From: Bimastos eiseni
Taxonomy: Eukaryota > Annelida > Clitellata > Crassiclitellata > Lumbricidae
Direction of reading: 5' to 3'
DNA length: 64,000 nucleotides
NCBI GenBank assembly: GCA_959347315.1
Contig: OY365810.1
Span: 22,648,906-22,712,905 of the forward strand
Position numbers and translations under genes: made by a program. Under the pieces are notes generated by a model. It saw nothing but the letters and a program-made list of their open reading frames with translations. It was not told the origin of the DNA and did not search any database. Within the stretch, counting starts at the first letter, position 1, and the number at the start of each line of letters is the position of its first letter. Shown here one piece after another: positions 48-26,107 of the stretch.

Positions 48-1333
48 CTAGTATCCATATCCGTGGTTGCGTCCATGGCCATCGTAGCCATAGCCACCAT
101 ATCCATGGTTACCGTAATTTCCGCCAGTTCCTGGCACGCCTTCCCAACGTGCAGTTCCGATTCCAGAACCGACGTGTTCAGCTACGTTGTTAACGTGCAG
201 TTGACGTGCAGAATTTTGATAGTTGGAAGCAACACCATCTGGCCTGTTAATGCAAAAGTGCGAATAGTTAGGATTTTTTGATCTTTAGCAGATATTTGCA
301 TCAAATCCTGATTTGACCGATTATTCAGTACACACATTATTATTCAACCAATAGAATTGGCAGGATTGTATTGAAAACCCTGGACGAATTGCACAGGGTG
401 TAGCGTGATCTCAGCAGGACAATTCCTCGAGACATTTCACCCATTGGCTTTTATACAAAACTAAATACTAAGCAATTTGTTCATTTAAACTGGATTCACA
501 GGATTACACACTATTCTTATGTAGGCTACTACCTTCACGCCATCGCAGCAAATTGGCTGCATGACTATCAATAAGCAATCCGATATAAAACCAGCACTTT
601 TATATGCACGTTTCATTGAAGATGAAATAGTGTGCTTTCAGACAAGTTAGATTGGCAGTCAGAAAGCAACAGCCTAGAGTAGGAACACTCTCGATGTACT
701 CGTATGCTAGAAGAAATATTTGCATCAAATAATTTGAAAACTGTTTAGACGGAGTACATGTTCGTGGTTCATGTCTTATTATTGAATTAGAGTTAAGTGC
801 CATGGCCTTGGGCACAGTTTACAGTTCCTCGAGTTTTATGAGGAGATAAGTCATACAAAGCAATGCCCAGAGGATTAACCGAGATGATTAGTATCTGAAA
901 CAATGTCCGGGTTCCAATTTTACAAAATAACTCAAACAAAGTCTTTAAAAGGGGTTTAAAAATGCAAAGAGCATTGGTGGTCTTTATACAAATTTAATGA
1001 TAGATTTTATCAAGGCGCGGCGAAAATGTCGGTTTCAAACTTTGAATTTCAAGAAATTTTATTTGAATTGGATTCAGTACATTTATAAATGACGCTTTTT
1101 CAATAACATGGTTTATTACAGTATACTGGCAACAAATAATAAAATACAAAAAAGTAAAAATGTCCTTATTTAAAAATATTTTGCAGGCATCCTGAATTTT
1201 AGATGCAGAGGTTGTGATGTTGTGCTTACACGTGTCTGAGTCCGGGCTCATAGTGATCGTACGAAGTGGCTTTGTCATACCCAGCGAAGACAATAGTCAC
1301 AGTAGCAACAAATAAAACCAGAACGACCTTCAT
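48..1333 (-). CDS. Peptide gene 1: secreted Gly/Tyr/His-rich peptide, type B (99 aa)
   Basis: Two exons on the minus strand, complement(join(48..243,1230..1333)), 104 + 196 nt. Exon 1 encodes a signal peptide (MKVVLVLFVATVTIVFA, likely cut before [18 protein letters not shown]). The donor is GTAAG, the acceptor is TTAACAG, and a Val codon is split 2+1 by the 986-bp intron. Exon 2 starts PDGVASNYQNSARQL, continues with [12 protein letters not shown] and ends in Gly/Tyr/His/Asn residues (NHGYGY, stop TAG). The C-terminus lacks the AGY ending of type A genes. No known family recognised; a secreted structural, adhesive or antimicrobial peptide is possible but not shown. Its partner, gene 2, starts 519 bp away on the other strand. 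Its TATA element is degraded to TACAAAAGG at 1413..1421, so expression may be weak. Confidence 0.85.
728..860. repeat. Dispersed repeat, inverted copy of 3653..3787
   Basis: About 130 bp inside the intron of peptide gene 1 that reappears in reverse orientation at 3653..3787. Shared words include CATGGCCTTGGGCACAGTTT and its complement. The two copies bracket the gene 1/gene 2 pair. I do not see termini that identify a transposon class. Confidence 0.75.
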
Positions 1334-1852
1334 CTTGTTCTCTCAGCGGTTGATGGTGACTTAGCTACGAAACGAAGTCGAACTGAACTATGACAATGGA
1401 CATCACAACGGTCCTTTTGTACTTGACGATTCGCTTTCACATACACAAGCTTTGTATGACAGATAGTGAGAGAAACACATTCAGAAATACAGACAGACGG
1501 ATAAGCAAACAGACAGAATCTACATGGAGCAATAGTCGAATATAGGGTCAAGCTCTCATTTTCATGTCAAAAACATTAATACAAAGGGCACATAGTTATA
1601 CATTTGCCTCGGCAGTGGGCCAATTGCCGCCATCAGTTGCTGACAATGGCGTGATATTCTCCGCTTATGCTTATGTCTCTGTTTGTCCTTCTCTGTCTGT
1701 TTCGTATGCGATGCATGTGGGAATGCATAGCATTGAGCAGATGTTGCTGTCCAGTGGCCCTATAAAAGGTCCGTCTGCTGTGGTAAGTTATCACAGTTCA
1801 GTCTGCCTTCGTTTCGTCGACAAGTGGTAACTTACCGTCTACAGAACAAGTC
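1334..1852. promoter_or_regulatory. Divergent promoter of peptide genes 1 and 2
   Basis: 519 bp between the two start codons. The gene 2 side has TATAAAAGG at 1761..1769 and a likely initiator, TCACAGTTCAG, beginning at 1791. Upstream is a block repeated before other type A genes, with CGTATGCGATGCATG, GAATGCA and CCAGTGGCCC. The gene 1 side has TACAAAAGG (1413..1421, read on the minus strand), then the type B leader CATAGTTCAG. Leader sequences of A and B genes differ but both contain AGTTCAG at the expected transcription start. Function is inferred from position and conservation. Confidence 0.75.
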
Positions 1853-2843
1853 ATGATGAAGGTCCTGTTGGTATTACTCGCTGCCACCGTGGCTGCTGTC
1901 TTCGCTGGATACGACAACACTGCATCACACGGTCACTACGAACCAGGACTCAGACACGTGTAAGCTCAACTTTTTCAGGAATATAATTAAAAGGTTACCT
2001 ATTCAGTGGACCTCGAATTCAAATTAACCTACAATTAAGAAACATGAATAAAGTCGTCCGTAATTAAATGTAATTTCTCTTCTATGTGTGTATTTCACAC
2101 ATAAATATATGATTGTGACTTTGGCTTTCAAAAATTTTTAATTCTGGTATACATATATCTATGTTTAATTTGTTTAATTGTTTATGCTAAATGTACTCTC
2201 CTTTCATAATTCCAGATGTTGAGGATGTTCGTTTCAGCAACGCACTGCTTTGTCAAAATCGATTTCTAATGCATAATTATTGCATCATGAGAAGATATAG
2301 TATCCATCATATTCGCATCCGTGATTGCGACCGTGTTCATCATATCCGTTCAGTTCGATAGCAACCATACGAATTTGGATTATATAAAGACTATTGATTC
2401 ATTGTCGCAAAATATATACATATAAATCAAATTATAACTACAGGTTGGCCATTATCCTGCTCATTTTAACTGGTCGCTTAGTGCACTTTGTGTCTCGAGC
2501 TTGTCTTCAGTCTTGACTAGGCAAATAAACAATGGTAACTGTAAGGAACTCATAAGAAATTAAGTTTTTAAAAGACATTGACTCAGTCAATAGAAATACT
2601 GCCTAATTGCTTATTACTTTTTGAATAAACAGGCCAGATGGCGTTGCTTCCAACTATCGAAATGCTGAGCGTCAACTGTACGTTGATCACGTGGCTGAAC
2701 ACGTCGGTTCTGGAACCGGAACTGCTCGGTGGGAAGGCGTGCCTGGAACTGGTGGAAATTACGGTTACCATGGATATGGTGGCCACGGACACAATCACGG
2801 ATACGGACATGGCGACAATGGATATGGATACGCTGGATACTAA
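1853..2843 (+). CDS. Peptide gene 2: secreted Gly/Tyr/His-rich peptide, type A (105 aa)
   Basis: Two exons, join(1853..1959,2633..2843), 107 + 211 nt, reading frame intact. Signal peptide [18 protein letters not shown], then [18 protein letters not shown]. The first of two adjacent ATGs is taken as start; either would work. The intron is 673 bp with donor CGT|GTAAGC and acceptor AATAAACAG|GCC. Exon 2 encodes PDGVASNYRNAERQLYVDH, a conserved [13 protein letters not shown] segment and a tail of [16 protein letters not shown] plus GYGYAGY. This is the long exon-2 class, with a DNGYGYAGY extension. An AATAAA lies at 2875..2880. The intron carries a small relic of another exon 2. Mature peptide about 87 residues, probably secreted; role unknown. 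Confidence 0.88.
2297..2352 (-). pseudogene. Fragment of a peptide-family exon 2 in the intron of gene 2
   Basis: The plus strand reads AGTATCCATCATATTCGCAT and then CCGTGATTGCG. This is the decayed complement of the 3' end of exon 2 (compare 23462..23520). It is preceded by GAGAAGATATAGTATCC-type 3' flank, as downstream of gene 7. The orientation is opposite to the host gene. Too short and altered to be coding. Confidence 0.65.
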
Positions 2844-3582
2844 ATTTCTGATATGTTGACAGGTGGAAATGAAAAATAAAATGATATATTGGATTATCCC
2901 CGCAAAACTACTGAACTGTGTACAATTTGGTACATTGATAAACCTATGTTTAATCAGTCAGTTTCGGTGGTGGCGATTTAAAAAATTATGTTTGAATCAC
3001 ATTTAGACGAATAATGCAACTAAATACAGCCTCATGGTTGTGAAACAACTAACAGCTAAACTGGCTGGTGAGATATTATAGAAACTGACAAGCAACTTAG
3101 CACTAGCACCATCTTCAGCAGCTTCACCTTTGCATTACATTCCATTGATTATAAGCCTTGAGACTACTATATTCACACCATCTTTAATAGCCCGCATCAC
3201 ATGACATTGCTTGTAGGCCACAGATATCTTCACATTCAGCTGTTTTCTTATAAAAAAGGCTTTGTCATGAATCATTGATTCCTTGACCATTAGGTAGAAT
3301 CAACTTTGGCTGCTTGCCAGTTATCTATTGTCTTTCTTGACAAGTTATATAAATAAACTGCCCAATAATGTACTTAAGTTTTCTCATACTCCATACTTTG
3401 ACCTCCAACTTCTATGGAATCTTTATGGAATTAGACTCAATGATGAACAAACACTTAGACTAAAATTCTACCTAAAGCGATCATCGAATTGAGACAATTT
3501 GCTGCGTTATAATTCCTTTATAGGAGTCACCTGATCTGATAAGATAAATAAACAGCTCAAGCTAATGATGACGAAGAGTGTC

Positions 3583-3616
<34 letters not shown>

Positions 3617-4929
3617 CACCTGTTTCAGATGGCAAAAAGGAACGAAAGACATACTTTGTATGACTTCTTTCCCATAAAGCTCGAGGAACTGTAAACTGTG
3701 CCCAAGGCCATGGCACTTAACTCTAATTCAATAATAAGACATGAACAACGAACATGTATTCCGTCTAAACAGTTTTCAAATTATATCAAATTTTACGATG
3801 CTGGTCAATGAAGCAAGGTTCTGATGTCGAACGTGCTTATGTAGGTAGTCTACATAAGCACAATGCAAAGCTCATTTCTTATACAAAACACACATTTGTT
3901 GCAAAGCTGAGAATCCTATGATCGATTCTGACGCTCACTGCACAATAGTAAGCTAATCGAAAAAAAATTATGATGAGTTCATTCTTCTTAGATGGCTTAT
4001 TGAAAATGCCAGGGTTATATATTATTCAAAGTAGCGTTTTATTACGCGATATGAGACGATTTCTTACTCAAAATTCCACTAGACAACATATTATCATGAA
4101 AGTCATGTCTCTGTAATTAAATTTGTATTTTCTTATGTGGTTCAGTAAGGTTCTAAAAGTTGCAGCCAAATGTGTGACACGAATATTACACTGAAATTAA
4201 TTAATTGGCTACAATTTCGAAGAAACTATCAAATGCTTTGATTGTCATTGAATAATGAGCCTACACGGGCCTATACACTACATGTAAAAACTAAGGCCCG
4301 CTTCAACTTGCGATGGTGCATTGGCTGTCTCTTGTATAGCTGCTCAGGATTATCAATGGCAGAGGTGTCAGAGAGCCAGCCAGCTAGGCAATTATTGCCC
4401 GCCAATGATGTTTTTATGACTCACAGATCATTGGCTAAAGACCACATTATTTGAGAATCAAAGTTTAAATTTGTCATTTTTAGGGTTAATAAACTTTCAT
4501 TGATCCTTGAAAACTTGATGAAAATAAAGATCAAAATTAAGATTTGTGAAGAATAATTTAACTGCTTGTGTGCTAGAAATGTACCATTGAAGATTAAGTT
4601 TGCAATACATTTCTCAACAAGCCCCATTTCAGATCTCTACCCCATTTTGCTCAGACTGGAAAATCTTACTACTGGCTCGCCATTGACAAAAGATTTGACA
4701 CTTCTGATCTATGGTTAGCGTCCCACAGTAGTGGGCCAACATGGAAGTGGACCAGTTTCCCTGGTACCATTTCTCCATAATAGCAATATCTTTGTGTAAA
4801 CCTTTGCGTGCTCATTGCTAGTCAAGCCTCACGTTGTTCGGGTAAAATCCGAGTGGGAATGGAGTAAGTGGATCTTTAAGAAGATGTTGCAGCCAAGTGT
4901 GTGTCCCATTCTTTCTGAACTCTATTATG
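2844..4929. other. Gene-free spacer: type A 3' flank, (AT)n and dispersed repeat
   Basis: Contains the shared type A 3' flanking segment (about 2960..3480, also seen behind genes 4, 5, 7 and 9), an (AT)15 run at 3584..3613 and the inverted repeat copy at 3653..3787. From about 3790 to 4929 I see no gene or recognisable element. Confidence 0.6.
3653..3787. repeat. Dispersed repeat, inverted copy of 728..860
   Basis: Reverse-oriented counterpart of the repeat inside the intron of gene 1. It sits beyond the 3' end of gene 2, so the gene pair is enclosed by the two arms. Confidence 0.75.
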
Positions 4930-4969
4930 CAGTATTGTACGGAGCCCCTAAAGGGACATGAAAGAAGAA

Positions 4970-5262
4970 TATTTTATCTCGTGCGCACGAGATACAAACT
5001 CGTGGGCACGAGATAAAAATTCGTTCCCACGACTTACTAAGTCGTGTGCACAAGTTAATATGTCGTGGTAACGAGATATTAACTCGTTCCCACGACTTAC
5101 TAAGTCGTGGGAACGAGTTAATAACTCGTGCGCACTACTTAATATCTCGTGCGCACTACTTAATATCTCGTGCGCACGACTTAATAAGTCGTGCGCACGA
5201 GTTAGTAGCTCGTTCCCTCGACTTAATAAGACGTGCGCACGACTTATTTGACCAATTACGTC
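4970..5262. repeat. Left array of CTCGTGCGCACGAG palindromes
   Basis: More than a dozen tandem units of about 20 bp alternate CTCGTGCGCACGAG or CTCGTTCCCACGAC with a TTAATA/TTACTAA linker. Each unit is self-complementary, so the array could fold into serial hairpins. Frames across it are open only because the repeat lacks stops. Confidence 0.85.
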
Positions 5263-5689: not shown

Positions 5690-5800
5690 ATCCAAACTTC
5701 TAAAGCGCCGCTTGAAAGCTAAGCGCAGGGCACCAGCTTATTCACTAGGGCTGCGTCAAATCGAAAGGGTTGTTCAAAGGATAGTCCGTGGGAGGTCAAA
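5690..5800 (-). mobile_element. 3' tail of a non-LTR retrotransposon family
   Basis: Read on the minus strand, CCTTTGAACAACCC, GATTTGACGCAGCCC and GCCCTGCGCTTAGCTTTC match 46319..46440. Endings of the same type (CGCC...TTTAGAAGTTTGGA) also occur at 56155..56230. Only the 3' end is present. Confidence 0.65.
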
Positions 5801-7044: not shown

Positions 7045-7210
7045 AAATAACTCGTGCGCACGAGTTAATAAGTGGTGGGAACGAGTTTGTGTCTCGTGCG
7101 CACGAGTTAATATCTCGTTCGCACGAGTTAATAAGTCGTTCTAAACTTACATATCACCTTTTCAAAAACTCGTTCGCACGAGTTAATATCTCGTTCGCAC
7201 GACGTAGAAT
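7045..7210. repeat. Right array of CTCGTGCGCACGAG palindromes
   Basis: The same unit type as 4970..5262, near the opposite end of the element, shorter and interrupted by unrelated bases at about 7140..7165. Confidence 0.85.
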
Positions 7211-7604
7211 ATTTATCTTTCATGTCTCTTTAAGGGCTCCCTAGTACTGTGCTTTTTTCGGTATGGCCTTGGAATCTTCGGCTAATGCCTTGAAATTCTC
7301 TGACCCCATTCTATTTTACTATGAAATCTGCCTCTTTTGGCCGAGGTTAGCCTGGAAGTGCCTCCGAGAAGATTAATATCTTGAAGGGACCCTATGTCAA
7401 GTATCATTGATTCATTTATTAATGTCCTCAATCAATTTCTTGTAGTTTCATCCCTGACATTGCCGAGAAAGTGAATTGACACCAGACGAAATATGCTGCA
7501 GCATTTAACTTGAAATTCAACTGTGCTAAATGCCATCAACCTATGCACTCAATGCGTAATGAGACTGATATGCAACGATCACTCGTCATCATGTCAGAAA
7601 TTTA

Positions 7605-7808
7605 TTATCCAGCGTATCCGTATCCATTGTCGCCATATCCATATCCGTGATTGTGTCTATGATCACCATATCCACGGTAACCGTAATTTCCTCCAGTTCC
7701 AGGTGCGCCTTCCCATCGAGCAGTTCCGGTTCCAGGACCCACCTGTTCAGCCACGTGGTTAACATACAGTTGACAGCATTTTGGTAGTTGGAGGCAACGC
7801 CATCTGGC
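7605..7808 (-). pseudogene. Orphan type A exon 2, frameshifted
   Basis: A full-length copy of the long (211-nt) exon-2 class, with an intact acceptor (GACTAAACAG|GCC) but only 204 nt. A 4-nt deletion after PDGVASNYQNA shifts the frame, and the last Tyr codon is lost (GGA TAA TAA). No exon 1 of its own exists: upstream on the same strand come gene 3's exon 2 and then its exon 1. It could only be reached by exon skipping from gene 3. Read out of frame it stays open to its end, but this is a property of the Gly/Tyr-rich sequence in every copy. Confidence 0.8.
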
Positions 7809-8382: not shown

Positions 8383-9144
8383 CTAGTATCCATATCCGTG
8401 ATTGCGTCCATGGCCATCGTAGCTGTGTCCACCATATCCGTGGTAACCGTAATTTCCGCCAGTTCCTGGCACGCCTTCCCAACGAGCAGTTCCGGTTCCT
8501 GAGCCCACATGATCAGCCACGTGATTAACGTACAGCTGACGTGCGGAATTCTGATAGTTGGAAGTTACGCCATCTGGCCTGTAAACGCAAAAGTGCGAAT
8601 CGTCGGGTATTCAAAACCTTGGAAGGATATTTATATCAAATCCTAATCTTAGAACTGCAGATTCCTCAATTCAAAAATTAATTCAAACTATAGAATAGTC
8701 AGGATTCTATTGGAAATTGGAACCCTGGACGTGTTTAATGGGGTTTCTGATTTTTCTGTGACTAAAGACTTACAAGATACTTAAAAGATGGTTAAATTAT
8801 TGTCCTCAAACATACGTGATGATGACAAGGCCGCAGCAAGCATGTTCTTAACAAACTTTAAAAAAGAACAGGTAAAGTAATACTATAGGAGCATTAGATG
8901 ACCTTATTTCAAAACCAGTTTACACGTATAATGAATGTGGCACGGTGGCTGATTGGTTAGAGCGGTCGACCCGTAACGATATCAATTAACAGTTGTATTG
9001 TAATGCATTGTAATAGCTGCAGTGGTTGTAATGTACTTACACGTGTCTGAGTCCGGGTTCGTAGTGATCGTACGAAGTGGCTTTGTCGTACCCAGCGATG
9101 ACAACGGTAACAGTAGCAACGAACAAAACCAGAACGACTTTCAT
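8383..9144 (-). CDS. Peptide gene 3: secreted Gly/Tyr/His-rich peptide, type B (99 aa)
   Basis: Complement(join(8383..8578,9041..9144)), 104 + 196 nt. Signal peptide MKVVLVLFVATVTVVIA, then [18 protein letters not shown]. Exon 2 encodes [31 protein letters not shown] and an ending HSYDGHGRNHGYGY, stop TAG. The 462-bp intron is the shortest of the family and contains the stump of a SINE that is intact at the same place in gene 8. Exon 2 and 3' flank are nearly identical to gene 8, so genes 3 and 8 are recent duplicates in opposite orientation. TATA box at 9227..9235 (minus). Gene 4 starts 565 bp away on the plus strand. Function unknown. Confidence 0.87.
8938..8982 (+). mobile_element. Truncated tRNA-derived SINE in intron of gene 3
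   Basis: GGCACGGTGGCTGATTGGTT followed by AGAGCGGTCGACCCGTAAC matches the A-box head of the SINEs at 25285..25475 and 29545..29700. Everything after this head is deleted. Flanking intron words (ATGAATGTGGCA on one side) match the flanks of the intact copy in gene 8, so this is the same ancestral insertion. Confidence 0.75.
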
Positions 9145-9709
9145 CTTGTTCTCTGATTGGTTGATGTCAACTTAGCTACGAAACGCAGTCGAGCTGAACT
9201 ATGACAATGGACTACATCAGGACGGTCCTTTTATACTGAACCATGACGATTTGCTTTCACAGACACCTACACAATTATTAAGCTTTATACGTCAGAGTTA
9301 GAAATAGTGTGAGAGATGGTCGAGGAGACAAAAAGACACAGACAGTAAGAATCCACTAGAAAAACTATTCTGGTGCAAGGCCATCATATTTGTGTAACAT
9401 TCATAACAAGCGGAGCAGTGGTGCAAAGGCTCGTAATATACGTTTGTTGTAGCAACTGCAACCATCCGTTGCTGACAATGCGTATGTGTGTGCCAACGAA
9501 ACTTCGTGTCTCTCTCCGCGTCCGCTTAGGTCAATGTTTGCCCTCGTCTGTCTGTTTCGTATGCGATCTATGTTGGAATGCAAATCATTGAACAGATGCT
9601 GCAGTCCAGTGGCCCTATAAAAGGTCCGTTCTGTTGTGGTCATTTGTCACAGTTCAGCCCGCTTTCGCTTCGAAGACAAGTGGTAAACTTACCGCATACA
9701 GAACAAGTG
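9145..9709. promoter_or_regulatory. Divergent promoter of peptide genes 3 and 4
   Basis: 565 bp. Gene 4 side: TATAAAAGG at 9616..9624, preceded by CCAGTGGCCC and the conserved type A block with CGTATGCGATC and GGAATGCAAATCATTGAACA. Gene 3 side: TATAAAAGG on the minus strand at 9227..9235, followed by the type B leader. ATTTGCATT on the minus strand resembles an octamer site, but this is only a resemblance. Confidence 0.78.
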
Positions 9710-11073
9710 ATGATGAAGGTCCTGTTGGTTTTACTCGTTGCCACCGTGGCTGCTGTCTTCGCTGGATACGACAAAGCTGCATCATACGGTCATTACGAAC
9801 CCGGACTCAGACACGTGTAAGCATCACTTAGGCCTAGGGGTGTAACAAGCGGGGGGCAGAGGGCACCGGCCCCACAGTTTTGAAACTGGGGGCCCCAGTT
9901 TTAGTACTCAGTGCCCCCATGTACCCCAAATCGGTTTTTTATGTTTCTTCAATGGCTGTTTAAAATGACTTTTGTTAAGATAATTTGTTCCCCCCACTTT
10001 TCAAATTGGGGGGGTTGTTGCAAACTAACTCAAATAGTGGGAGGGGGAAAAAAATTCTTTCCGCTTCGCGCAATATTTCATAAATTATGCCCCCCACTTT
10101 TCAAAATCTTGTTACACCTCTACTTAGGCCTTCTTATCAATTTTATAGTCGTCAATGAGCGCTGGATTCATAATAACATATGACAAAGAAACAAGAATTA
10201 TTGTCCCCCTGCATTATGTTTTTATTCTATGTATGCCTGTGCTATCGCAAATCCTTTTATAATATTGTGATTTTTTAATCTGTCAAGAATGCATACAACG
10301 CAGTTTGTGGAAATGGTCGCTATTAGGGCCTAATTAGATGACGAACTTTCAAAATAAGAAAATAGGCTAATTGATCTTGATTGCAAATAATTTTGATCAG
10401 TCCTACATAGTATGACGTAATATCTTCGTTTAATTTTTAAACTGGCAAACCGCGATGTGATCATTTACGAATGATGATAAATAATTGATGATGACAACAC
10501 CTATTTCATTTATAACATTTAAATATAGGCACATATGTAGGCTAAGTCGCACGCACGCCTTACATCTAATTGAACCACCCATTGCCATCGCCTAACGTCA
10601 ACCTTATGCGAAGCAAAAATCTTCCTCGCTTTCTTTGCTCTGCACGCCAAATTCTACCGATTTGACCTATTCTACGAGCCTCCTTCAGCTTAATTTAAAA
10701 TAGAATCACGCTGAAGTACAATATAAGCGTCACACAATCGATTGTTGCCTGGTCGCCTCATTTTATCTGTGCTATAAGCTAGTTTTCACTTAACAAATTA
10801 TGTTAGCAGTTAAAAACTTTTATAAAACAATGTTTCTAAGACACACAAATTGGGATAATTGTTTTTATTGTTCGACTAAACAGGCCAGATGGCGTTGCTT
10901 CCAACTACCAAAATGCTGCACGTCAACTGTACGTCAATCACGTGGCTGAACACGTGGGTTCTGGAACCGGAACTGCTCGGTGGGAAGGTGTACCTGGAAC
11001 TGGAGGAAATTACGGTTACCACGGATACGATAGCCACGAACGCAATCACGGATACGGATATGCTGGATACTAA
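9710..11073 (+). CDS. Peptide gene 4: secreted Gly/Tyr/His-rich peptide, type A (98 aa)
   Basis: Join(9710..9816,10884..11073), 107 + 190 nt. Signal peptide [18 protein letters not shown], then [18 protein letters not shown]. Exon 2 encodes [35 protein letters not shown] and a short tail, HGYDSHERNHGYGYAGY. This is the short exon-2 class, lacking the GDNGYGY extension of gene 2, and it has a unique SHE in the tail. The 1067-bp intron is enlarged by a hAT-like MITE inserted 10 bp after the donor GTAAG. Splicing may still work because the donor itself is intact. Confidence 0.87.
9835..10122. mobile_element. 288-bp hAT-like MITE with 8-bp target duplication
   Basis: Terminal inverted repeats TAGGGGTGTAACAAG and CTTGTTACACCTCTA, flanked on both sides by CTTAGGCC (9827..9834 and 10123..10130). 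An 8-bp duplication and ends of this type are typical of the hAT superfamily. Interior is G-run/C-run rich with no transposase. A second copy lies at 31856..32146. Confidence 0.88.
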
Positions 11074-15239: not shown

Positions 15240-16445
15240 GGGGACATACGGGTATCGATCATAAGACGATCAGAGATTGATTCATCATAGGTCGTTTGGT
15301 CACAGGGACCATTGGTCACAGGGACGATTGGTCTGACCAATCGTCTCTATGACCGACAGTCCCTATGACCTGTTTGGTCATAGGGACTATCGGTCATAAG
15401 AGGATTGGCATAGGGACGAAGGGTCGTATGTTCAAATATTGTTATCATTAGTGGATCGAAGCAGCCACCATATGAACTTTCCGTGATTCACTTCCAAATG
15501 CCCGAGTGTCAGGTTGTTGCTCTTACCTAACACAGAGTATTTTGAGAAAAATTAATGAAATTAACAAAATAGGATTGAAAACGGTTTACGAAAACAACGA
15601 CGTCGTGCGTGGTTTCTTCCGCTGCGCTTGTGATTCCGAAAGACGCCATAGAATCGTTTAAATTCTAATCGTATCTGTGCCAGTAGTCGATGACATGGAC
15701 AAGCTGATCTCATATTTCGAGCGCACCGACTGACATTAGGGGTTGTCGTTTAAGAGGTCGTGGCACAAATTATGGACCACCGCAGTTCGACATCGAACTA
15801 TGGAATCATCGAGATGTGGATGCGGAGGGAATAGCACGAACGACTTACACCATGGAAGGATGGCAACACAGACTTCAAACGCAATTCCAACGTAGCAATC
15901 CTACAATGTGAAAATTCCTCTCTCTATAAACGATTGCATGAAGCAGGAAGCAGCATTCTTCCAGGGTGTGCCGGGAATTGAACAACCAAGTGCAAAGAGA
16001 TATCGCCTATGATTATCGTGTCATGCGAGCTGTTGCTATTTATGGGAAAACCCAAACCCGACATTCTAACTTATCTGCGAGCCTTGTCTTATAATATGTT
16101 TTTTAAGTAGTAAAAATTATTCCTATGTTCTACAAACTCTCATGTAGTTTTTGTATATGCCCTATGGCTTTGTGTTTCTTAGTTTTCAATAAATAGACCT
16201 ATGTGCGTTTATGAACTCTAGTCAACTTTATAAACTTTAATAACTCTAAATGAGTTGACTATGACCAATCGTCCATATGACCGATAGTCCCTATGACCAA
16301 TTGACCCTATGGCCAATAATCCCTTTGACAATCGTCCCTATGATGGATAGTCCCTACGACCAATTATGACCATTCGACCTATGACCGATCATCTTATGCC
16401 CAATCATCCTATGCCCAATCGTTCTATGACCAATCATCCCAGATC
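15240..16445. mobile_element. Decayed Mutator-like element with palindromic-array ends
   Basis: The left end (15285..15430) and the right end (16260..16440) are inverted arrays of an approximately 18-bp unit, GACCAATCGTCCCTATGACC and variants. Between them is a translated relic of a FLYWCH/MULE-type transposase. The architecture matches 4930..7249, but the repeat unit differs. No target duplication could be fixed because the ends are diffuse. Confidence 0.65.
15690..16060 (+). pseudogene. Relic of a FLYWCH/MULE-type transposase C-terminus
   Basis: One frame reads NYGPPQFDIELWNHRD, then RTTYTMEGWQHRLQTQF and RSNPTM followed by an in-frame TGA where the family usually has Trp. It then runs INDCMKQEAAFFQGVPGIEQ and KRYRL. 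The order (WN, then TTN-type, then E-W-H, then a HPT-W position, then KQE and RYR) is that of proteins with N-terminal FLYWCH fingers and a MULE transposase domain. Upstream LISYFERT fits the same model but is broken by stops. Confidence 0.65.
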
Positions 16446-16449
16446 TCGC

Positions 16450-17440: not shown

Positions 17441-17450
17441 TGTCAGAAAC

Positions 17451-18334
17451 CTAGTATCCAGCGTATCCATATCTATTGTCGCCATATCCGTATCCGTGAT
17501 TACGTCCATGACCGCCATATCCATGGTAACCGTAATTTCCGACAGTTCCAGGCACACCTTCCCACCGAGCAGTTCCGGTTCCAGATCCGACGTGTTCAGC
17601 CACGTGATTGACGTACAGTTGACGTGCAGCATTTTGGTAGTTCGAAGCAACGCCATCTGGCCTGTTTTGTCATAACGTAATAAATAATAACATCATATTT
17701 CAATATATTAAGTCAATTTCTTTTAGAGATTTCATTGTGTATGCGTTCTTAACTATTAATATTGTTAGTTTGCTTAGTCAAAACGCAGAGTGAACAAAGC
17801 GGAAAGTCAAAAAGCGCAGGATATCTACCTACTTACATGCAGTTACGAGCCAATCTGAGTTATATTTAAAGGATTTGCGATAACGATCTACTGATTTTTT
17901 AATAATCCAAATTCATCTGTTTGCTATCAAACGTTTAAATGATCACGCATTAGAAGTCTGATTTTATAAGACAATACGTTGATGTAACGAATATCCTCGA
18001 CATCTTGTATAATGAATACAGAGTATTTAGCAAAAAACATGGAGTTGTTGCTCTGTATACATTTCTACATAGCCCAAAAGATGAAAGTAATCAAAGTATG
18101 CCGTGTATTCATTGATCTAAGCTCACATTAAATTACGGCAAATTTAATTTCTATTTCTCAATCGAAGATTAAAATGAATCCTGGTCTATTGAATATCATA
18201 GAAATTAATTGAATCAGTTGAACTTACACGTGTCTGAGTCCTGGTTCGTAGTGACCGTAGGATGCAGTGTTGTCGTATCCAGCGAAGACAGCAGCCACTG
18301 TGGCAACGAGTAAAACCAACAGGACCTTCATCAT
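17451..18334 (-). CDS. Peptide gene 5: secreted Gly/Tyr/His-rich peptide, type A (105 aa)
   Basis: Complement(join(17451..17661,18228..18334)), 107 + 211 nt. Signal peptide [18 protein letters not shown], then [18 protein letters not shown]. Exon 2 encodes [35 protein letters not shown] (Val replaces the usual Gly) and the long tail GYGDNRYGYAGY. Intron 566 bp. TATA box at 18422..18430 (minus). The arrangement is head-to-head with type B gene 6, the mirror image of gene pairs 1/2 and 3/4. Nearly identical to gene 9 in exon 2. Confidence 0.88.
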
Positions 18335-18867
18335 CACACTTGTTCTGTAGACGGTAAGTTTACCACTTGTCTTCGAAACGAAAGCAGACTGAACTGTGAT
18401 AACTTACCACAACAGAACGGACCTTTTATAGGGCCACTGGACAGCAACATCTGTTCAACCTTGTGCATTCCAGCATGCATCACATGCTAGACAGACAGAA
18501 AAGGACAGAAGCGGAGACGGACACGAAGTTTCGTGGGGACATCTATTTACACGCCATTGTCAGCAACTGATGTCTGAAGTGAGCACACTGGCGAAGCAGA
18601 CTATAACTATGTGCCTATTGTATCCTTACATGCAAGCAATCAGTTGACCTTCTAATTATCCGAATATTGTCACAGATGGAGTCTGTCTGTCTGTCCGTCT
18701 GTCTGTCTGTCTGTCTGCCTTTCTGATTGTTTTCTCTCTATCTAAGTGCATGTGAGAGCGAATTGTCGTCGTCCAGTATAAAAGGACCATCGTGATGTAG
18801 TCTATTGTCATAGTTCAGTTCGACTTCGTTTCGTAGCTAAGTCGCCATCAGCCGCTGAGAGAACAAG
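18335..18867. promoter_or_regulatory. Divergent promoter of peptide genes 5 and 6
   Basis: 533 bp. Gene 5 TATA at 18422..18430 (minus strand TATAAAAGG) with CCAGTGGCCC just upstream. Gene 6 TATA at 18777..18785 (plus), followed by the type B leader GTCATAGTTCAG. A (GTCT)n run occupies about 18680..18716 between them. Confidence 0.78.
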
Positions 18868-20253
18868 ATGAAGGTCGTTCTGGTTTTATTTGTTGCTACT
18901 GTGACTGTTGTCTTCGCTGGGTATGACAAAGCCACTTCATACGATCACTACGAACCAGGACTCAGACACGTGTAAGCACTAAGCACAACATTATATCCAC
19001 TGCAACTAAAATCCAAAATGTGCGCAAAATGTTCTTAAATCGAGGATATGTTTTCTTCATTACATTCTGTTATTTGCTGTAACCGCGAGGCAAGGCATCA
19101 AGTTATTGAGAAACATTCCCTATATCAAACTATTTAATTGAAATCAAATGGAATTTCAGTTAATTTTAATTTAAAAACTGACACTTTCGTCGAGTCTTGT
19201 ATAAAGATAATTGACCTTGCATTTTTTAGAACCTTTAATTAAAGATTTTTATGTCAGAATTACGCTTGTCCAATTTTCAAATTAGGACCCGAATATTGTT
19301 CCTGGCACTATTCCTCTCGGTTCTTCCTCTGGAATAGTTTTCGGAATGAGGTCCAAAACAAGAAAAAAAACAATAAACTTATGAAATAGAATATAACTTA
19401 TTTAAGAAATATCTATCTAATGGCTAACTAGTGACGTTGTTTAATGCATTTCATGCTAAAAATAAAGCGTCATATGAGACGTAGGCCTACGCCACCGTAG
19501 ACTCAATCACTGTTCAAAGTGCTTATGATTTGCAAAGAAAAAGTATAAGTACTAATGCATCTATTTGATTTCACGAAACAGCCCGATATAAGTAAATTGT
19601 TCTAGACTACGAGCACATCGAAAGTAGGCCTATTCCATATCTAGACAAGGACATTTTGTTTTCAAACGACTCTACTGTAAATGATTTAACTTTTGTAATA
19701 GCTCACTATTCATGTGTAACCTCGATGAAACGTGCTTAATGCCTAGGACACGTGATATACACGTGATGGTTATATCCCGTCACTTATTGAGTCATGCAGA
19801 CAATAACATTTGTAGCGATGGTGTGAAGCTCGTACATTAAAATATTGTGAATCAGGTTTAAGTGAACAATTGTATAGTTTTTTGTAAATGAAAGTCAATG
19901 AGTAAAATGTATTGAGGAATTGTCCAGGAGAAGCTAACTAAGTCCCGTTCAATTCGTCCCGAGTTTTTAACACAATACCGCCGATTCTAATGTCTGATTA
20001 AGAATTTGTTGACTGATTAATCAGTGAGGATCGGCTTTGATGCAAATATCTCTGCGTTGACAGGCCAGATGGCGTTGCCTCTAACTATCAAAATGCTGCA
20101 CGTCAACTGCACGTCAATCACGTGGCTGAACATGTGGGTTCCGGAACAGGAGCTGCTCGTTGGGAAGGCGTGCCTGGAACTGGAGGAAATTACGGTTACC
20201 ACGGATACGATGGGCACGGACGCAATCACGGCTACGGATATGCTGGATATTAA
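18868..20253 (+). CDS. Peptide gene 6: type B exon 1 joined to type A-like exon 2 (97 aa)
   Basis: Join(18868..18971,20064..20253), 104 + 190 nt. Exon 1 is type B: MKVVLVLFVATVTVVFA, then [18 protein letters not shown]. The 3' part of the 1092-bp intron also resembles type B introns (TTTGATGCAAATATCT). Exon 2 however ends NHGYGYAGY like type A, and its 3' UTR starts AAATTTCT as in gene 2. Seventy bp further on lies a truncated type B exon 2 with type B 3' flank. The simplest reading is a recombination that placed an A-like exon 2 in front of the original. The frame is intact and the product should be secreted. Confidence 0.85.
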
Positions 20254-20322
20254 ATTTCTTCAACCTTCAACTAAGACATTTAAAAGAGCAATTTATGTAG
20301 TAATCAATAAATCGACGACTCA

Positions 20323-20427
20323 GCTCGTTGGGAAGGCGTGCCCGGAACTGGCGGAAATAACGGTTGCCATGGCTATGGTGGACCCGGCTACGATGGCCAA
20401 GGACGCATCCACGGATATGGATACTAG
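20323..20427 (+). pseudogene. Truncated type B exon 2 behind gene 6
   Basis: Starts abruptly at the codons for [11 protein letters not shown] and runs to HGYGGPGYDGQGRIHGYGY and TAG. The first 90 nt and the splice acceptor are missing. The downstream 250 bp matches the 3' flanks of type B genes 3 and 8 (AACAGTTAC, CCTCCATCTCGTCTGT). It is the likely former exon 2 of gene 6. Confidence 0.8.
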
Positions 20428-23400
20428 GGCTTATCCTAGATAAATCATTTGACGATGCTTGGAACAGTTACACGTACCTCGGACTAATTATAGATATAAA
20501 ATTATAACACGATAGGATTAATTGATTTTACAACAGACTGGAAGCAGTAGGTCTGTGCTGTTGTCCAATTCAAGTTGAAGCGGAACAAAATAATTACGAT
20601 GGCATCAATTATAATACTTCAAAGATTTAGCTCAAGATTACCTCCATCTCGTCTGTCAATCTCATTTGTTCGTCATTTACCCTCCATCGTATATTATTTT
20701 ATTTGCTAGTGAAAGCGAAGCTTTCAAAGCCATCATATCCTAATTCCGTAAAATAAGTGGGTCTTGCATTGTACTTACTAAAGCTACCAACTTATTCGAA
20801 AACAGAGCCTATGCTGGAACAAAATAATTAGACCCGAATCATGACATTATTTGAAATAGAGGTTGCAATATGGAAGTATTTGCACAATTGTTTTAAAACT
20901 GATAAATGACTTAAATGTCTGGCTTAAAAATATCCTTCTCATTTTTTCTGGAAGTACGTTTTTCTTTTTCTGGAACATTGCACATGTTGCATCTGGATCA
21001 TTTCTAACCATAATCCAGAGTTTCCCGCTGCATTCTCACAACTTCATTGGCCAGTATAAAAAAGATATTATATAGGCCTACTTGTACGTTGAAAAATATT
21101 TAGACCCAGTACAATCTAAAGCCCGCAAGGTTATAAAATGATGAACTTAATTATACATTTGAATTTAATTATTTAAAAAAACACAATTTTGTGTAATTTG
21201 GCTTTAATTGCGTGGACTGACACTGGAATTCATGAAATATAGTAGAATATGGGGTAATAGGTTGGAGTATATACACAAGCAAGTCCTACTTTCAGTTTTC
21301 CGCTCATGACTTCTTTAATCAAGAAGTCAGAGAGCGGACGCTTTGCATCCAAACCTATGTTGGAATCGTGTAAATAATTACTTGAACCGTGAAAATCCCC
21401 AAACTGAACAAAGATTCTATATCCTTGTTGATACAAAATGTGTGCTCTCTTCTCAAAGGCACATTGAAAGAATGTGAGCAACTATTAAAGATTATAAGGT
21501 ACGGAAGCGTTCTGTATTATGTGTTAATTGGTCGTCAGTATTTTTGTCCAGTATCAATAAAGGTAAATCCTCTTAGTCATGGATTTTGAGGTGTAGCCCG
21601 GTTCATGGTTGAATACAATGAAATGAAGTATTTACAATGGAAAATTGACCCATAGCAGTCATTGAGGAGGGGGCATGTTCTAAATGCCAGTCAGTGAATC
21701 TGCGTGTGCAAACGATATTGCTTAGGTGGCAGTTTGTTGAGGTGTCCTATTACATCTGGTAGTCATCATCGCTAGTTTGAGCTGTTCATTATCCTATCAG
21801 ATCAGATGATTCCAATAAGGCAGTTGTCATAAAGAAAAAGGCCTCAATCGATGATTGCTTTATGAAGTAGTCAGAGTGGTTGTCCCTTATATAGTGTCTA
21901 ATTCTGAGGACGGAAAATCATAGAAACTGGAGGTCAAAGTATGGAGTGTAGGCAAGCTGATATCAGAATTTTAGAAACTGTCTTGAAGTGAAAGTCTTGT
22001 GCTGTCTCGAACAAGCGGTCTTGATCAGTTTCACGTTAACTGTCTTACAATTTTGCGCTAGAAACTGAAACCGGAATTTACGAGAAACGGTAATTCTGGT
22101 TAACGCGCGAGTCACGTGATACTGAAATCAATTCAATTGTCTTAAAGTGGAAAAATGTCTGAGAGAGAACCTGAAATTGTGGAGTTTGCGTTTTTGAAGT
22201 TAGGCCTATTTACAAACAATAGCTATTGGCTATTAGTTTGTCATTGATGCAAAACCACCATAACCGAAACGATCGGAACAACTTCGAGTTTCTCTGGGTG
22301 AGTAAGGATATGGGCAAATTTATAATTTCGTTTGGTATTTGGTATCGAATTTGCTTGTTTAAAATCGTCTAGAAGATTTCAGACGTGCTTTCTGTATACT
22401 ATTCAGAAGATAGGCCGAAGAATAAATATTGAAAAAGATAAAACTCGGCAATATAAAAACTATTCTTGGGAATTGGTACAATATACATTATAATTAAGTT
22501 TCAAATTGAAATTACAAATGAACCTTATTCCCGAAAACTGATACATTAATATTTTACAGCCTTTTATATAGGATCACTTGTCTTTTACTGTCTCGAACTG
22601 TCTTGAACCTAGTGTCTCGGTCTCGGTACCTCACTGTCTCGGTCTCGGTCTCAGCATCTCACTGTCTCGGTCTCGTCTTGGTCTTGAAGTTTAAAGTCCT
22701 GCATACAACACTGGCTGAAATAGATTGCTGGCCTGTTTAAAACGAACAGTCCTGAAAGACATAAGAGAACTGACAAAGCTGAGTGTGAAGATACTTAGGC
22801 CTATGACCTACACACAATAGTATGTAATGCATGTTGATGAAAATGGTGCTAGTGCGAAGTTGCTTGTCAGCTTCCATATCTCAACTTAGCTAGCCTAGCT
22901 GCCAATTATTTGACAACTATGGAGTTGTGCGCAAATGTAGTTTAGTTATTTGCCTAGATTTGATTCGTTCAAAATATTCAGTCGCGAACATACAACTTAT
23001 TTCAAAACCATTTTTATTATTGAGACATCGATCGAAACATTACAATTTAACATACATGATAGAGTCATTCAGAGTCTTAACATCTCGGTGTGATGCTCAG
23101 CAATGGGTATTCCAAAAAGAAACATGTCACGCTAGCGTTAACTATGGATTCTCTTTTACTCAATGGATAAGATAGATGGCGGCATGTTCTATCTGCTTAC
23201 CAAGCAACAGTTTTATGAGATGACAAAACAGGTAACAACTTAATTAAATAAACAGCAATGAGCAGATTATCTTAGAAATTATGTTAGAAATTAGGAAACA
23301 CTGAAAGAATGAAAAAAGAAGGAGGAGGAAGAAAGAGGAGAGGAAATTTAATAAGTTAAGGTCTTTCAATAATCCAAATTGCATACAATTCAGTAGTTTT

Positions 23401-23460
23401 GTGAGAAGATACAGTATGTCATTTTATTTTTCATTTTCATCAACCGTCATTATCAGAAAC
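20428..23460. other. Gene-free spacer between genes 6 and 7
   Basis: 20428..20680 is type B 3' flank. From about 21,880 to 23,400 is the type A 3' flank of gene 7 (GGAGGTCAAAGTATGGAGT, as complement near 3395). It is interrupted at about 21,960..22,710 by an insertion carrying GTCTCG repeats. No coding sequence seen. Confidence 0.55.
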
Positions 23461-24548
23461 TTAGTATCCAGCATATCCGTATCCGTGATTGCGTCCGTGT
23501 CCATCGTATCCATGGTAACCGTAATTTCCACCAGTTCCAGGCACGCCTTCCCACCGAGCAGTTCCGGTTCCAGAACCGACGCGTTCAGCCACGTGATTAA
23601 CATACAGTTGACGTGCAGCATTTTGGTAGTTGGAAGCAACGCCATCTGGCCTGTTTTGTCAAAATATAATAAATAATTATTTCTCATTTTAATTAACTAA
23701 ACCAGTGTCTCATCCAATTTTTCTTCATATTTGTTTAATTAATTACTATTATTGGCCTGTTTTGTCAAGACCAGCTCGTAACACAGATGAAACTTAGCGA
23801 ACAGTCAAATAGCACTGGCTCAAGGCCTGAAGCTACAATTAGATATCATCTTAAAATAAAATTGTTTGGACCATGGAATATTCCTATTGGTTACGTGCAG
23901 GTTGACTAGTCCTTCTTTCGCCAAGCGATGGTGTTTGTTCAGTTTTATGTATCACGTGATGTGTGCCTACAATTTAAATTCCTATAACTTGCCATCATTC
24001 GCTAACGCTGTACTTATTTTGATTCTGCGCAGTTTAAATCCATAGAAATAGATAGTAAATAATTATTTGGAGGATTAATTAAAATCGTGTATCATTCAGG
24101 CTCTTTCGCGTCGTTATTCTTTATATTGAAACTGTTCATGCAAATTATGTTATCGTAACACTCAGCTAATGTAATAAAGTTGATCGAGTTGACCAGAAGT
24201 TTTTTGTGGAACATGTATAACTACATATATATACTTTTCTAGTCAATATGAATATATAGCTATAGACATCTTAGCCCTACAGCGACGGTGGCTGTAACAA
24301 ATGTGCTCACTAATCCACTATGAAATATTGCTTCCTAACATCAGGCATTGATTCCCAATGATAGGCCTAAGTGAATTTGAATCCAGAGTCCATAGAATGC
24401 TCTTTATATAATAATAATATTAATGATTAAGAAAAGCTCACACGTGTCTGAGTCCGGGTTCGTAGTGACCGTATGAAGCAGCTTTGTCGTTTCCAGCGAA
24501 GACAAGAGAAACGGTGGCAACGAGTAAGACCAACAGGACCTGCATCAT
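23461..24548 (-). CDS. Peptide gene 7: secreted Gly/Tyr/His-rich peptide, type A (98 aa)
   Basis: Complement(join(23461..23650,24442..24548)), 107 + 190 nt. Signal peptide [18 protein letters not shown], then [18 protein letters not shown]: Gln at position 3 and Asn in place of the usual Tyr are unique. Donor is GTGAG rather than GTAAG. Exon 2 encodes PDGVASNYQNAARQL, VAERVGSGTG (Arg, as in gene 10) and the short tail HGYDGHGRNHGYGYAGY. Intron 791 bp. TATA box at 24633..24641 (minus). Head-to-head with type B gene 8. Confidence 0.87.
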
Positions 24549-25110
24549 CAATTGTTCTGTAGACGGTAGGTTATTACTTGTCTTCGAAACGAAGGCAGAC
24601 TGAACTGTGACAACTGACCACAACAAATCGGACCTTTTATAGGGCCACTGGACAGCAACATCTGTTCAATGCTTTGCATTCCAACATGCATCGCATACGA
24701 AACAGACAGAGAAGGACAAACTGACATAAGCGGACGCGGAGAAAGACTCGGAGCGTCGTGGGTACATCAATTTGTACGCCTCTGTCGGAAACGCATAGCT
24801 ACATTTGGTTCACTGCCAAAGCATGCGCATTACAATGTGCTATTTGTTGCAATGCTTAGTATGTTATGTAACATGTCACGAATCATATGGCTTTGCATCC
24901 GACTATTGTTACAAGTAGATAGCCTACTGTCTGTCTGTCTCCTTGATCTTCTTTTACTATCCCCCTAACTCTGACATAAAAGAAACTAGCGTATGTGAAA
25001 GCAGGTCACAGTGATTCTGTATAAAAGGATCGTTCTGGTGTAGTCCATTGTCATAGTTCAGTTTGACTTCGTTTCATTGCTAAGTTGACATCAACCGTTG
25101 AGAGAATAAG
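24549..25110. promoter_or_regulatory. Divergent promoter of peptide genes 7 and 8
   Basis: 562 bp. Gene 7 TATA at 24633..24641 (minus), with CCAGTGGCCC and, beyond it, GCATTCCAACATGCATCGCA and CGAAACAGACAGAGAAGGAC, the fullest copy of the conserved type A upstream block. Gene 8 TATA at 25020..25028 (plus), then GTCATAGTTCAG. Confidence 0.78.
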
Positions 25111-26107
25111 ATGAAGGTCTTTCTGGTTTCCTTTGTTGCCACCGTGGCTGTTGTCTTCGCTGGGTATGACAAAGCCACTTCATACGATCACTACGAACCA
25201 GGACTCAGACACGTGTAAGTACATTACAATCACTGCAGTTATTACAATGCAATACAACTGTTGAATGATACCACCCTTTAGTTTAGTTCAGAAGTGCATA
25301 CACGCCTCAACGGCCCAATTGCAGTCGTACTGCAGAGCAATTGTGTGCTAAGGACTTGCTCAAGGTCCTTACACAATGACGCTTCGGACGAGAGTCGATC
25401 CCGCTCACTCAGGGCACACGGAGCGTTACCGGCCGACCGCTATAACCAATCGGCTACCATGCCACATTCATCATATGTGTAAAATAGTTTTGAAATAAGG
25501 ACATCTAATGCTCTTACATATGATATTATTTTACCTGTTATACACTATGCGGTTGATATAAAAGAAAACCAATTTTGCACAATTATTGCGAATCGAAATT
25601 AAATCAATTTTCAGGTAATTGAGATTTAAAGTCTGTTAATAAAATCTTTGCTGCGGCCTTTACCATCATCATGTATGTTTGAAGACAATGATCTAAGCAT
25701 CTTTCCAGCAAGTTGTAAGTCTTAAAAGCCAGACATATCAAAAACCCCGCTAAACACGTCCAGGGTTCCAATTTCCAATGAAATCCTGACTATTTTATAG
25801 TTTGAATTATTATTTTTGAATTGAGGGATCTGCAGTTCTAAGATTAGAATTTGATATAAATATCCTTCCAAGGGTCAGAATACCCAACGATTCGCACTTT
25901 TGCGTTTACAGGCCAGATGGCGTTGCTTCCAACTATCAGAATTCCGCACGTCAGCTGTACGTTAATCACGTGGCTGATCACGTGGGCTCAGGAACCGGAA
26001 CTGCTCGTTGGGAAGGCGTGCCAGGAACTGGCGGAAATTACGGTTACCACGGATATGGTGGACACAGCTACGATGGCCATGGACGCAATCACGGATATGG
26101 ATACTAG
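25111..26107 (+). CDS. Peptide gene 8: secreted Gly/Tyr/His-rich peptide, type B (99 aa)
   Basis: Join(25111..25214,25912..26107), 104 + 196 nt. Signal peptide MKVFLVSFVATVAVVFA, then [18 protein letters not shown]. Exon 2 encodes [31 protein letters not shown] and the type B ending HSYDGHGRNHGYGY, stop TAG. The 697-bp intron contains a full SINE in reverse orientation. Exon 2, intron and at least 250 bp of 3' flank match gene 3 in inverted orientation. Confidence 0.88.
25285..25475 (-). mobile_element. tRNA-derived SINE in intron of gene 8
   Basis: On the minus strand it begins GGCATGGTAGCCGATTGGTT, with a B-box-like GGATCGACTC about 50 nt later and a tail containing AAGGACCTTGAGCAAGTCC. 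The same insertion survives only as a 5' stump in gene 3. Confidence 0.8.

What the first reader, a model, noticed from the sequence alone, without database searches (positions are those of the whole stretch)
48..26107. Head-to-head pairs, each joining one type A and one type B secreted peptide gene
In four places (1/2, 3/4, 5/6, 7/8) a type A and a type B gene face away from each other across 519-565 bp with two outward TATA boxes. A-A or B-B pairs never occur, although the orientation of the pair is flipped in two of the four. This suggests that the pair, not the single gene, is the duplicated unit and that the two peptides are co-expressed and may act together. The family itself is not one I can name.
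Basis: partly seen in the sequence, partly recalled or inferred. Interest (0 to 1): 0.82.

Follow-up and report, generated by a model that had tools for sequence, protein, structure and literature searches.

The report
Head-to-head pairs of secreted worm peptides
In an animal genome, probably a segmented worm's, a cluster of small genes for secreted glycine-, tyrosine- and histidine-rich peptides has grown in part by copying head-to-head gene pairs with the region between them, much as silkmoth eggshell genes have.

Summary
The four A/B head-to-head pairs exist at the stated places. They lie in a 148-kb cluster of 20 intact two-exon genes, 11 of them in the window. The two types are variants of one family: signal peptide, conserved core, Gly/Tyr/His-rich tail, no cysteine. 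Profile searches find over 100 relatives; the six with a species name are all annelids. No Pfam, NCBIfam or PDB family matches.

A fifth A/B pair lies left of the window. In these five pairs the whole 522-616 bp between the genes is homologous end to end, so the pair was the copied unit. The claim that B-B pairs never occur fails cluster-wide: three more close divergent pairs encode two B-like peptides each, and three window genes are unpaired. What alternates is the promoter: 8 of 8 close pairs join one gene of each of two promoter classes. Gene A3 carries a converted B-like exon 2, so A and B are not strictly separate.

Best reading: a coexpressed, high-output array for an extracellular material, with architecture convergent on silkmoth chorion A/B pairs. 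Coexpression and the material role are inferred; no expression data were available.

The parts
48..1333 (-). gene A1: exon 1 1333-1230, exon 2 243-48 (99 aa)
1334..1852 (.). intergenic region of pair 1 (A1/B1); TACAAAAGG 1413-1421 (-), TATAAAAGG 1761-1769 (+), central block core 1636-1648
1853..2843 (+). gene B1: exon 1 (1853)1856-1959, exon 2 2633-2843 (104 aa from the second ATG)
8383..9144 (-). gene A2: exon 1 9144-9041, exon 2 8578-8383 (99 aa)
9145..9709 (.). intergenic region of pair 2 (A2/B2); TATA 9227-9235 (-), 9616-9624 (+), central block core 9468-9480
9710..11073 (+). gene B2: exon 1 (9710)9713-9816, exon 2 10884-11073 (97 aa)
17451..18334 (-). gene B3: exon 1 (18334)18331-18228, exon 2 17661-17451 (104 aa)
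18335..18867 (.). intergenic region of pair 3 (B3/A3); TATA 18422-18430 (-), 18777-18785 (+), central block core 18555-18567
18868..20253 (+). gene A3: exon 1 18868-18971 (A type), exon 2 20064-20253 (B-like; chimaeric gene, 97 aa)
20062..20321 (+). converted patch in A3: longest match is gene g4 (260 bp, 89%), ending where A-type sequence resumes at 20323
20323..20429 (+). displaced 3' half of the original A-type exon 2
23461..24548 (-). gene B4: exon 1 (24548)24545-24442, exon 2 23650-23461 (97 aa)
24549..25110 (.). intergenic region of pair 4 (B4/A4); TATA 24633-24641 (-), 25020-25028 (+)
25111..26107 (+). gene A4: exon 1 25111-25214, exon 2 25912-26107 (99 aa)
33122..34752 (-). unpaired gene B5: exon 1 34752-34649, exon 2 33332-33122 (104 aa), promoter class PB, TATA 34846-34854
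40052..41118 (-). unpaired gene B6: exon 1 41118-41018, exon 2 40241-40052 (96 aa), promoter class PA, TATA 41200-41208
60173..61103 (+). unpaired gene C7: exon 1 60173-60276, exon 2 60941-61103 (88 aa), promoter class PA, TATAAAAGA 60082-60090
7602..7808 (-). orphan B-like exon 2 with a broken reading frame
2298..2349 (-). short antisense exon-2 relic inside the B1 intron

Best explanation
The stretch is part of a 148-kb cluster of 20 two-exon genes for one family of small secreted Gly/Tyr/His-rich peptides, most likely in an annelid. Shown: the family, its hydrophobic N-terminus, splice structure and purifying selection; two promoter classes (PA and PB); growth of five A/B pairs by copying a head-to-head PA/PB pair as a unit, with changes of orientation; and a conversion-like replacement of exon 2 in A3. 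Inferred: the stretch between the two TATA boxes (about 340-380 bp in the window pairs) carries common regulatory sites, so both genes fire in the same secretory cells. The pair then raises output of nearly the same product, which is built into an extracellular material (tube, cuticle, mucus, cocoon or eggshell), perhaps crosslinked through tyrosine or histidine. The architecture works like the silkmoth chorion A/B pairs but is unrelated in sequence.
For: Twenty genes with open frames and GT..AG introns. dN/dS 0.13 overall, dN<dS in 190 of 190 comparisons. Mature peptides 71-87 aa, G+Y+H 42-49%, no Cys in 20 of 20, pI 6.2-8.2. P0001, an uninterrupted relative at 85% identity, runs through the exon junction. 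Relatives: 86 hits and 122 hits, 120 listed; all 6 with a species name are annelid, 5 Capitella teleta and 1 Paralvinella palmiformis. Five A/B pairs homologous end to end between the genes, 522-616 bp, mean identity 71%. Homology runs 686-874 bp upstream only in those ten genes. A central block occurs in 5 of 5 A/B pairs and in none of the other ten genes. PA/PB promoter split has support 100 and 8 of 8 close divergent pairs are mixed. Conversion patch in A3. Silkmoth chorion: most A and B genes paired and divergent under a common promoter region, 21 HcA-HcB pairs strictly head-to-head, an inversion, single genes and gene conversion (PMC4639761, passages read).
Against: No expression or protein data. 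The material role rests on composition alone. The middle of the intergenic region (63.5% with gaps counted, shuffled 49.8) is not clearly better conserved than synonymous sites (mean dS 0.41 over all genes) or than the B 3' flank (65.2%, shuffled 52.3); mainly its near-constant length sets it apart from the introns. The PA-side and PB-side trees of the eight pairs disagree and have weak support, as would follow from separate histories or from conversion. Four of 20 genes have no close partner.
Confidence: 0.55

Rival explanations
1. The head-to-head layout is a passive relic: an early inverted duplication made a divergent pair, later copying multiplied it, and each gene has its own sufficient promoter within about 100-200 bp.
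For: Promoter-only homology (98-208 bp) is all that ten intact genes share upstream. Unpaired genes keep TATA boxes and open frames. PA and PB proximal promoters are themselves homologous in reverse (minus-strand matches). The intergenic middle is not clearly better conserved than neutral sequence.
Against: Spacing of the five A/B pairs stays within 522-616 bp while their introns range from 462 to 1114 bp. All 8 close divergent pairs mix PA and PB (random-label p 0.02, copies not independent).
Confidence: 0.27
2. Two-component system: A and B peptides are different partners that must be made together and act as a pair.
For: All five A-type genes in the cluster are paired with a PB gene. The A-type tail is kept in A1, A2, A4 and g8A.
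Against: Partners' mature peptides are 82-92% identical outside gaps in the five A/B pairs. A3 has a B-like C-terminal part. Three close divergent pairs lack an A peptide.
Confidence: 0.1
3. Host-defence peptide cluster.
For: Local multi-copy secreted peptide family with conversion; Gly- and His-rich antimicrobial peptides are known (recalled, not tested). Two dispersed relatives, L023 and L024, have basic mature parts (pI 8.2 and 9.3).
Against: pI 6.2-7.2 in 19 of 20 cluster genes (8.2 in g5), no Cys, strong purifying rather than diversifying selection.
Confidence: 0.08

Closest known systems
Silkmoth (Bombyx mori) chorion locus, HcA/HcB and A/B gene pairs
   Same: Secreted structural proteins in a cluster; most genes are divergent A/B pairs with a common promoter region; arrays of head-to-head pairs with an inversion; single genes and pseudogenes between; gene conversion (PMC4639761 and PMC13409908, passages read).
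   Different: No chorion match among 60 family members scanned against Pfam-A (only one stray weak hit to an unrelated family). No cysteine here, whereas HcA/HcB are high-cysteine. Chorion A and B belong to two branches; here A and B are near-identical paralogues. Host is probably an annelid, tissue unknown.
Capitella teleta hypothetical proteins CAPTEDRAFT_223880, 192779, 207294, 216377, 217383 and Paralvinella palmiformis LSH36_14g08036
   Same: Same protein family by profile search. All six share RQ..VN and a GVPG or GMPG motif. Four begin with a hydrophobic signal-like stretch, and P0051 has one after an internal Met (my reading).
   Different: Tails and N-termini differ; P0133 is a 278-aa gene model. 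Gene order in those genomes was not available here.
Sabellariid cement proteins (Pc-1 to Pc-5)
   Same: Secreted adhesive proteins of annelids; [quoted passage not shown]
   Different: Not compared by sequence here; whether they carry the conserved core is untested.

Membership tests
Undescribed annelid-linked secreted Gly/Tyr/His-rich family (Capitella CAPTEDRAFT_223880-like) | Core with invariant N45, R48, Q49, V52, N53, A56, G60, G64, V71, P72, G73 (P0001 numbering) | tested here: met
   Invariant over 60 aligned relatives. All 11 positions kept in 19 of 20 cluster proteins; B1 has D for N53.
Undescribed annelid-linked secreted Gly/Tyr/His-rich family (Capitella CAPTEDRAFT_223880-like) | N-terminal signal peptide and Gly/Tyr/His-rich tail | tested here: met
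   Tail and composition tested: G+Y+H 42-49% of the mature part. Of 143 relatives, 125 have core and GVPG-like motif; 117 of these have a tail of 15 or more residues, median G+Y+H 0.62. Signal peptide by reading only (hydrophobic N-terminus, cleavage after VFA), no predictor run; helix 2-17 in the model.
Lepidopteran chorion proteins | Sequence homology to the chorion family | tested here: not met
   No chorion match among 60 members against Pfam-A.
Lepidopteran chorion proteins | Arrays of divergent A/B pairs with a common short promoter region, single genes between, gene conversion | tested here: met
   (architecture only; common control of expression not tested).
Lepidopteran chorion proteins | High cysteine content (late HcA/HcB) | tested here: not met
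   0 Cys in the mature part of 20 of 20 cluster proteins.
Cationic or disulphide-rich antimicrobial peptides | Net positive charge or a cysteine framework | tested here: not met
   Net charge at pH 7 from -3.4 to +1.4, positive in 3 of 20 (g5, B4, B6), no Cys, 20 cluster proteins.
Bidirectional promoter pair | Both genes transcribed together from one shared region | not testable with these tools
   No transcript data for this genome; only sequence architecture was examined.

The most novel reading that the evidence does not exclude
An annelid lineage evolved, independently of moths, a chorion-like locus: an array of bidirectional head-to-head pairs for an undescribed family of secreted Gly/Tyr/His-rich proteins that form an unknown extracellular material, in which promoter class rather than peptide type is the fixed asymmetric element of each pair.
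Probability: 0.35. Interest if true: 0.65.

Novelty: new variant of a known kind. Interest (0 to 1): 0.5.

Why it matters
If coexpression is confirmed, head-to-head pairing of secreted structural genes with pair-wise copying has arisen at least twice (moth eggshell and here), which would point to a general way to raise and balance output of an extracellular material. It also gives a handle on a protein family with many relatives but no entry in the family libraries searched, and on what material it builds.

Tried and rejected
Pfam, NCBIfam, PDB sequences, Rfam and tRNA search gave nothing useful. The NCBIfam hit of 2 of 60 members to a Gly-repeat RiPP model and the Pfam Wzy_C hit of 1 of 60 I take as low complexity or chance. 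Scans of the viral and prokaryote genome collections found no relatives. AlphaFold2 of P0001 on a 60-row alignment gave mean pLDDT 57.9, with a signal-peptide helix (2-17), short strands and a core helix (45-58); too poor for a fold search, so none was run.

Paper searches: the conserved peptide strings (0 papers), annelid or polychaete plus residue-rich terms, the named Capitella and Paralvinella proteins, head-to-head plus annelid, secreted and mucus terms, glycine and tyrosine, and a first tunicate guess. I saw no title or abstract start in these listings that names this family; lists were cut (25 of 36, 12 of 18, 15 of 16, 12 of 32) and only open-licence PMC text is held. Passages were read in PMC12621633, PMC4639761 and PMC13409908 only.

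Rejected: that B6 (-) and C7 (+), 19,054 bp apart, are a split A/B pair: both have PA-class promoters. Rejected: that the pairs descend by simple inversion of a two-pair block; the tree joins pair 1 with 3 and 2 with 4, while block inversion predicts 1 with 4 and 2 with 3. A third short block tested upstream was found in pair 2 only. An early guess that the host is a tunicate was dropped. Not done: a genome-wide census with distant relatives and an independent annelid marker test, because the genome search stayed unreachable.
Full report
Observation. Gene models with GT..AG introns and open frames were built for all eight genes and for three further genes of the window, B5, B6 and C7. The outer limits 48 and 26107 are the stop codons of A1 and A4. 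Start codons are 522, 568, 536 and 565 bp apart. TATAAAAGG is exact at 7 of the 8 paired promoters; A1 has TACAAAAGG. Each gene has a short exon 1 (101-104 bp: signal peptide and about 17 mature residues) and an exon 2 with the core and a Gly/Tyr/His-rich tail.

Are they genes? Over all 190 pairwise comparisons of the 20 cluster genes mean dN is 0.053 and mean dS 0.406, and dN is below dS in 190 of 190. P0001, from a 921-base contig, is 85% identical over 90% of the query and runs without interruption through the exon junction RHV-PDGV, which supports the splice. Introns of the five A/B pairs align on average little better than shuffled sequence (A introns 49.1 against 46.3, B introns 49.5 against 47.4), though single comparisons reach 59-60%.

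The family. One search with B1 gave 9 hits. A profile of B1 and 8 of these gave 86, and a profile of 60 relatives gave 122, of which 120 were listed. Six hits carry a species name, five Capitella teleta (P0037, P0088, P0091, P0115, P0133) and one Paralvinella palmiformis (P0051); both are annelids. Over 60 aligned relatives 11 core residues are invariant; 19 of the 20 cluster proteins keep all 11, B1 has one change. Of the 143 relatives listed in all, 125 matched my core-plus-GVPG filter and 18 did not; 6 of the 125 have a Cys between core and C-terminus. No Pfam, NCBIfam or PDB family fits. Several relatives share a contig length (P0029 and P0046, 71,196; P0079 and P0084, 54,685; P0068, P0092 and P0119, 2,242,423), which suggests clusters in other genomes too, though the gene order there could not be seen.

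The whole cluster. The window is G000:C5:22648906-22712905 of a 660-Mb genome. I fetched C5:22540001-22742905 apart from the window itself. The stretch holds 20 genes from 22562031 to 22710008: g1 to g9 to the left, then the 11 of the window. A scan with all 143 relatives found no further member in it; 5,000 bases at 22581906-22586905 read N. Elsewhere the B1 search found single genes at C5:33.56 Mb (L023) and C11:17.51 Mb (L024), an exon at C5:23.92 Mb (L025) and fragments on C7 (L026). L023 and L024 show no second family gene within the fetched 10 kb. The census is a lower bound, because searches with more distant members did not complete.

Pairs. Nine neighbouring gene pairs point away from each other. 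Eight are close: g1/g2 1,821 bp, g3/g4 1,297, g6/g7 776, g8A/g9B 616, and the four of the window; the ninth, B6/C7, is 19,054 bp wide and I do not count it. Five of the eight are A/B pairs, and all five A-type genes of the cluster are in them. The other three encode two B-like peptides each, so 'B-B pairs never occur' is wrong for the cluster. Four genes have no close partner: g5, B5, B6 and C7. Partners' mature peptides are 82-92% identical outside gaps in the five A/B pairs (68-84% with gaps) and 86-95% in the other three.

Two promoter classes. Aligned promoters fall into two groups with support 100. PB has GGCCC before the TATA box in 7 of 9 genes and the TATA box at -95 to -102 in 7 of 9 (g1, g7, B1-B5); g9B (GGCCG, -85) and g3 (different context, -92) join them in the tree. 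PA has the TATA box at -88 to -93, mostly after CAG (A1-A4, g8A, g2, g4, g5, g6, B6, C7). The single-gene outgroups L023 and L024 fall on the PA side, on long branches. All 8 close pairs join one PA and one PB gene; with random labels this has p = 0.02, but the copies are related, so the figure is only a guide. The constant asymmetry is thus in the promoter. A-type peptides are made by 5 of the 11 PA genes.

The pair as copied unit. In the five A/B pairs the whole region between the genes is homologous end to end. Upstream homology of those ten genes to another copy reaches 686-874 bp, while in the other ten it stops at 98-208 bp. The tree of the four window pairs is (p1,p3)|(p2,p4), support 98. 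Short-region trees agree in part (A2 with A4, 92 in promoters and 98-99 in exon 2; B1 with B3, 85) and conflict in part (in exon 1, B3 joins g7 at 90 and B4 joins g9B at 87); trees of the PA and PB sides of all eight pairs disagree and are weak. For the pairs g1/g2, g3/g4 and g6/g7 the two ends match the others in register. Short middle pieces are shared as well: 65 bp between g6/g7 and g1/g2 (78%), 46 bp between g8A/g9B and g1/g2 (76%, E 2.7e-4) and 34 bp between pair 1 and g6/g7 (82%, E 6.6e-5). A common origin of all eight pairs is therefore likely but not shown.

Constraint between the genes. Spacing is 522-616 bp in the five A/B pairs against introns of 462-1,114 bp in the same genes. The middle, with 110 bp cut from each end, is 63.5% identical with gaps counted, against 49.8 for shuffled sequence. 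That is not better than neutral divergence would give, and the B 3' flanks are as similar (65.2 against 52.3). The argument for shared control therefore rests on length and on local blocks. A central GTTGCTGACAATGGCGT-like block is found within 4 substitutions in 5 of 5 A/B pairs and in none of the other ten genes (900 bp upstream searched); a 36-bp B-proximal block is in all five A/B pairs and also above g1 (2 substitutions) and g7 (9); a third block I tried is in pair 2 only. With up to 3 mismatches the 13-base core of the central block is not rarer or commoner than chance in the window (26 matches, 22.9 expected); exact copies are in pairs 1, 2 and 3 only.

Exchange between types. A3 has A-type promoter, exon 1 and intron end, but 20062-20321 is 89% identical over 260 bp to g4, covering exon 2 and its 3' flank, and A-type sequence resumes at 20323 with the displaced half of the old exon 2. 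Exon 2 alone is slightly closer to g1, g2 and g3 (91-92% over 182-200 bp), so the donor is g4-like by extent rather than proven. The A3 protein is a chimaera. A broken B-like exon 2 lies at 7602-7808 (-) downstream of A2, and a short antisense piece in the B1 intron.

How it probably works. Shown: precursors with a hydrophobic N-terminus, purifying selection, pair-wise copying, two promoter classes, a conversion-like patch. Inferred: common regulation, high output in secretory cells, and assembly of the product into an extracellular material. The cluster peptides are mostly neutral to weakly acidic, without Cys, and rich in Gly, Tyr and His, which fits a tyrosine- or histidine-linked material better than a cationic or disulphide-rich antimicrobial; the two dispersed genes L023 and L024 are basic (pI 8.2 and 9.3). 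Since both partners make nearly the same peptide, the pair more likely serves dose and joint timing than a two-component product.

Comparison. [quoted passage not shown] PMC13409908, passages). The proteins are unrelated by Pfam and the late chorion proteins are high in cysteine. I therefore call this an architecture that works like the chorion locus without being a member of it: a new variant of a known kind, in an undescribed family ('undescribed' meaning no match and nothing seen in the listings).

Noticed in passing
window 20174-21931 and G000:C7:452857-454614 (L026:3500-5257): A 1,758-bp stretch from mid exon 2 of A3 onward has a 100% identical copy, inverted, on another contig: a very recent dispersal or an assembly duplicate.
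   Followed up: partly
window 4978-5246 and 7046-7139: Two arrays of a 21-bp unit (CTCGTGCGCACGAGTTAATAA) about 1.8 kb apart, possibly the ends of one inserted element.
   Followed up: no
window 15296-15333 and 16259-16440: Short-period arrays of similar units (TTGGTCACAGGGACCA and CTATGACCAATCGTCC) on either side of about 900 bp.
   Followed up: no
whole window: TAGGCCTA is the commonest 8-mer made of more than two different letters, 21 copies in 64 kb.
   Followed up: no
window 43015-43803 (-): Reverse-transcriptase-like open frame of a retroelement remnant; Pfam RVT_1 only at E 0.058, below its cut-off.
   Followed up: no
G000:C5:22581906-22586905: 5,000 bases read N inside the cluster, in a stretch of about 40 kb without family genes; a gene could be missing there.
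   Followed up: no
L023, L024, L025: Dispersed relatives elsewhere in the genome, L023 and L024 as single two-exon genes. L023 matches P0002 at 87%, L025 matches P0027 at 83%, and window gene C7 matches P0003 at 100% over 35 residues, so near relatives of this worm are in the searched data.
   Followed up: partly
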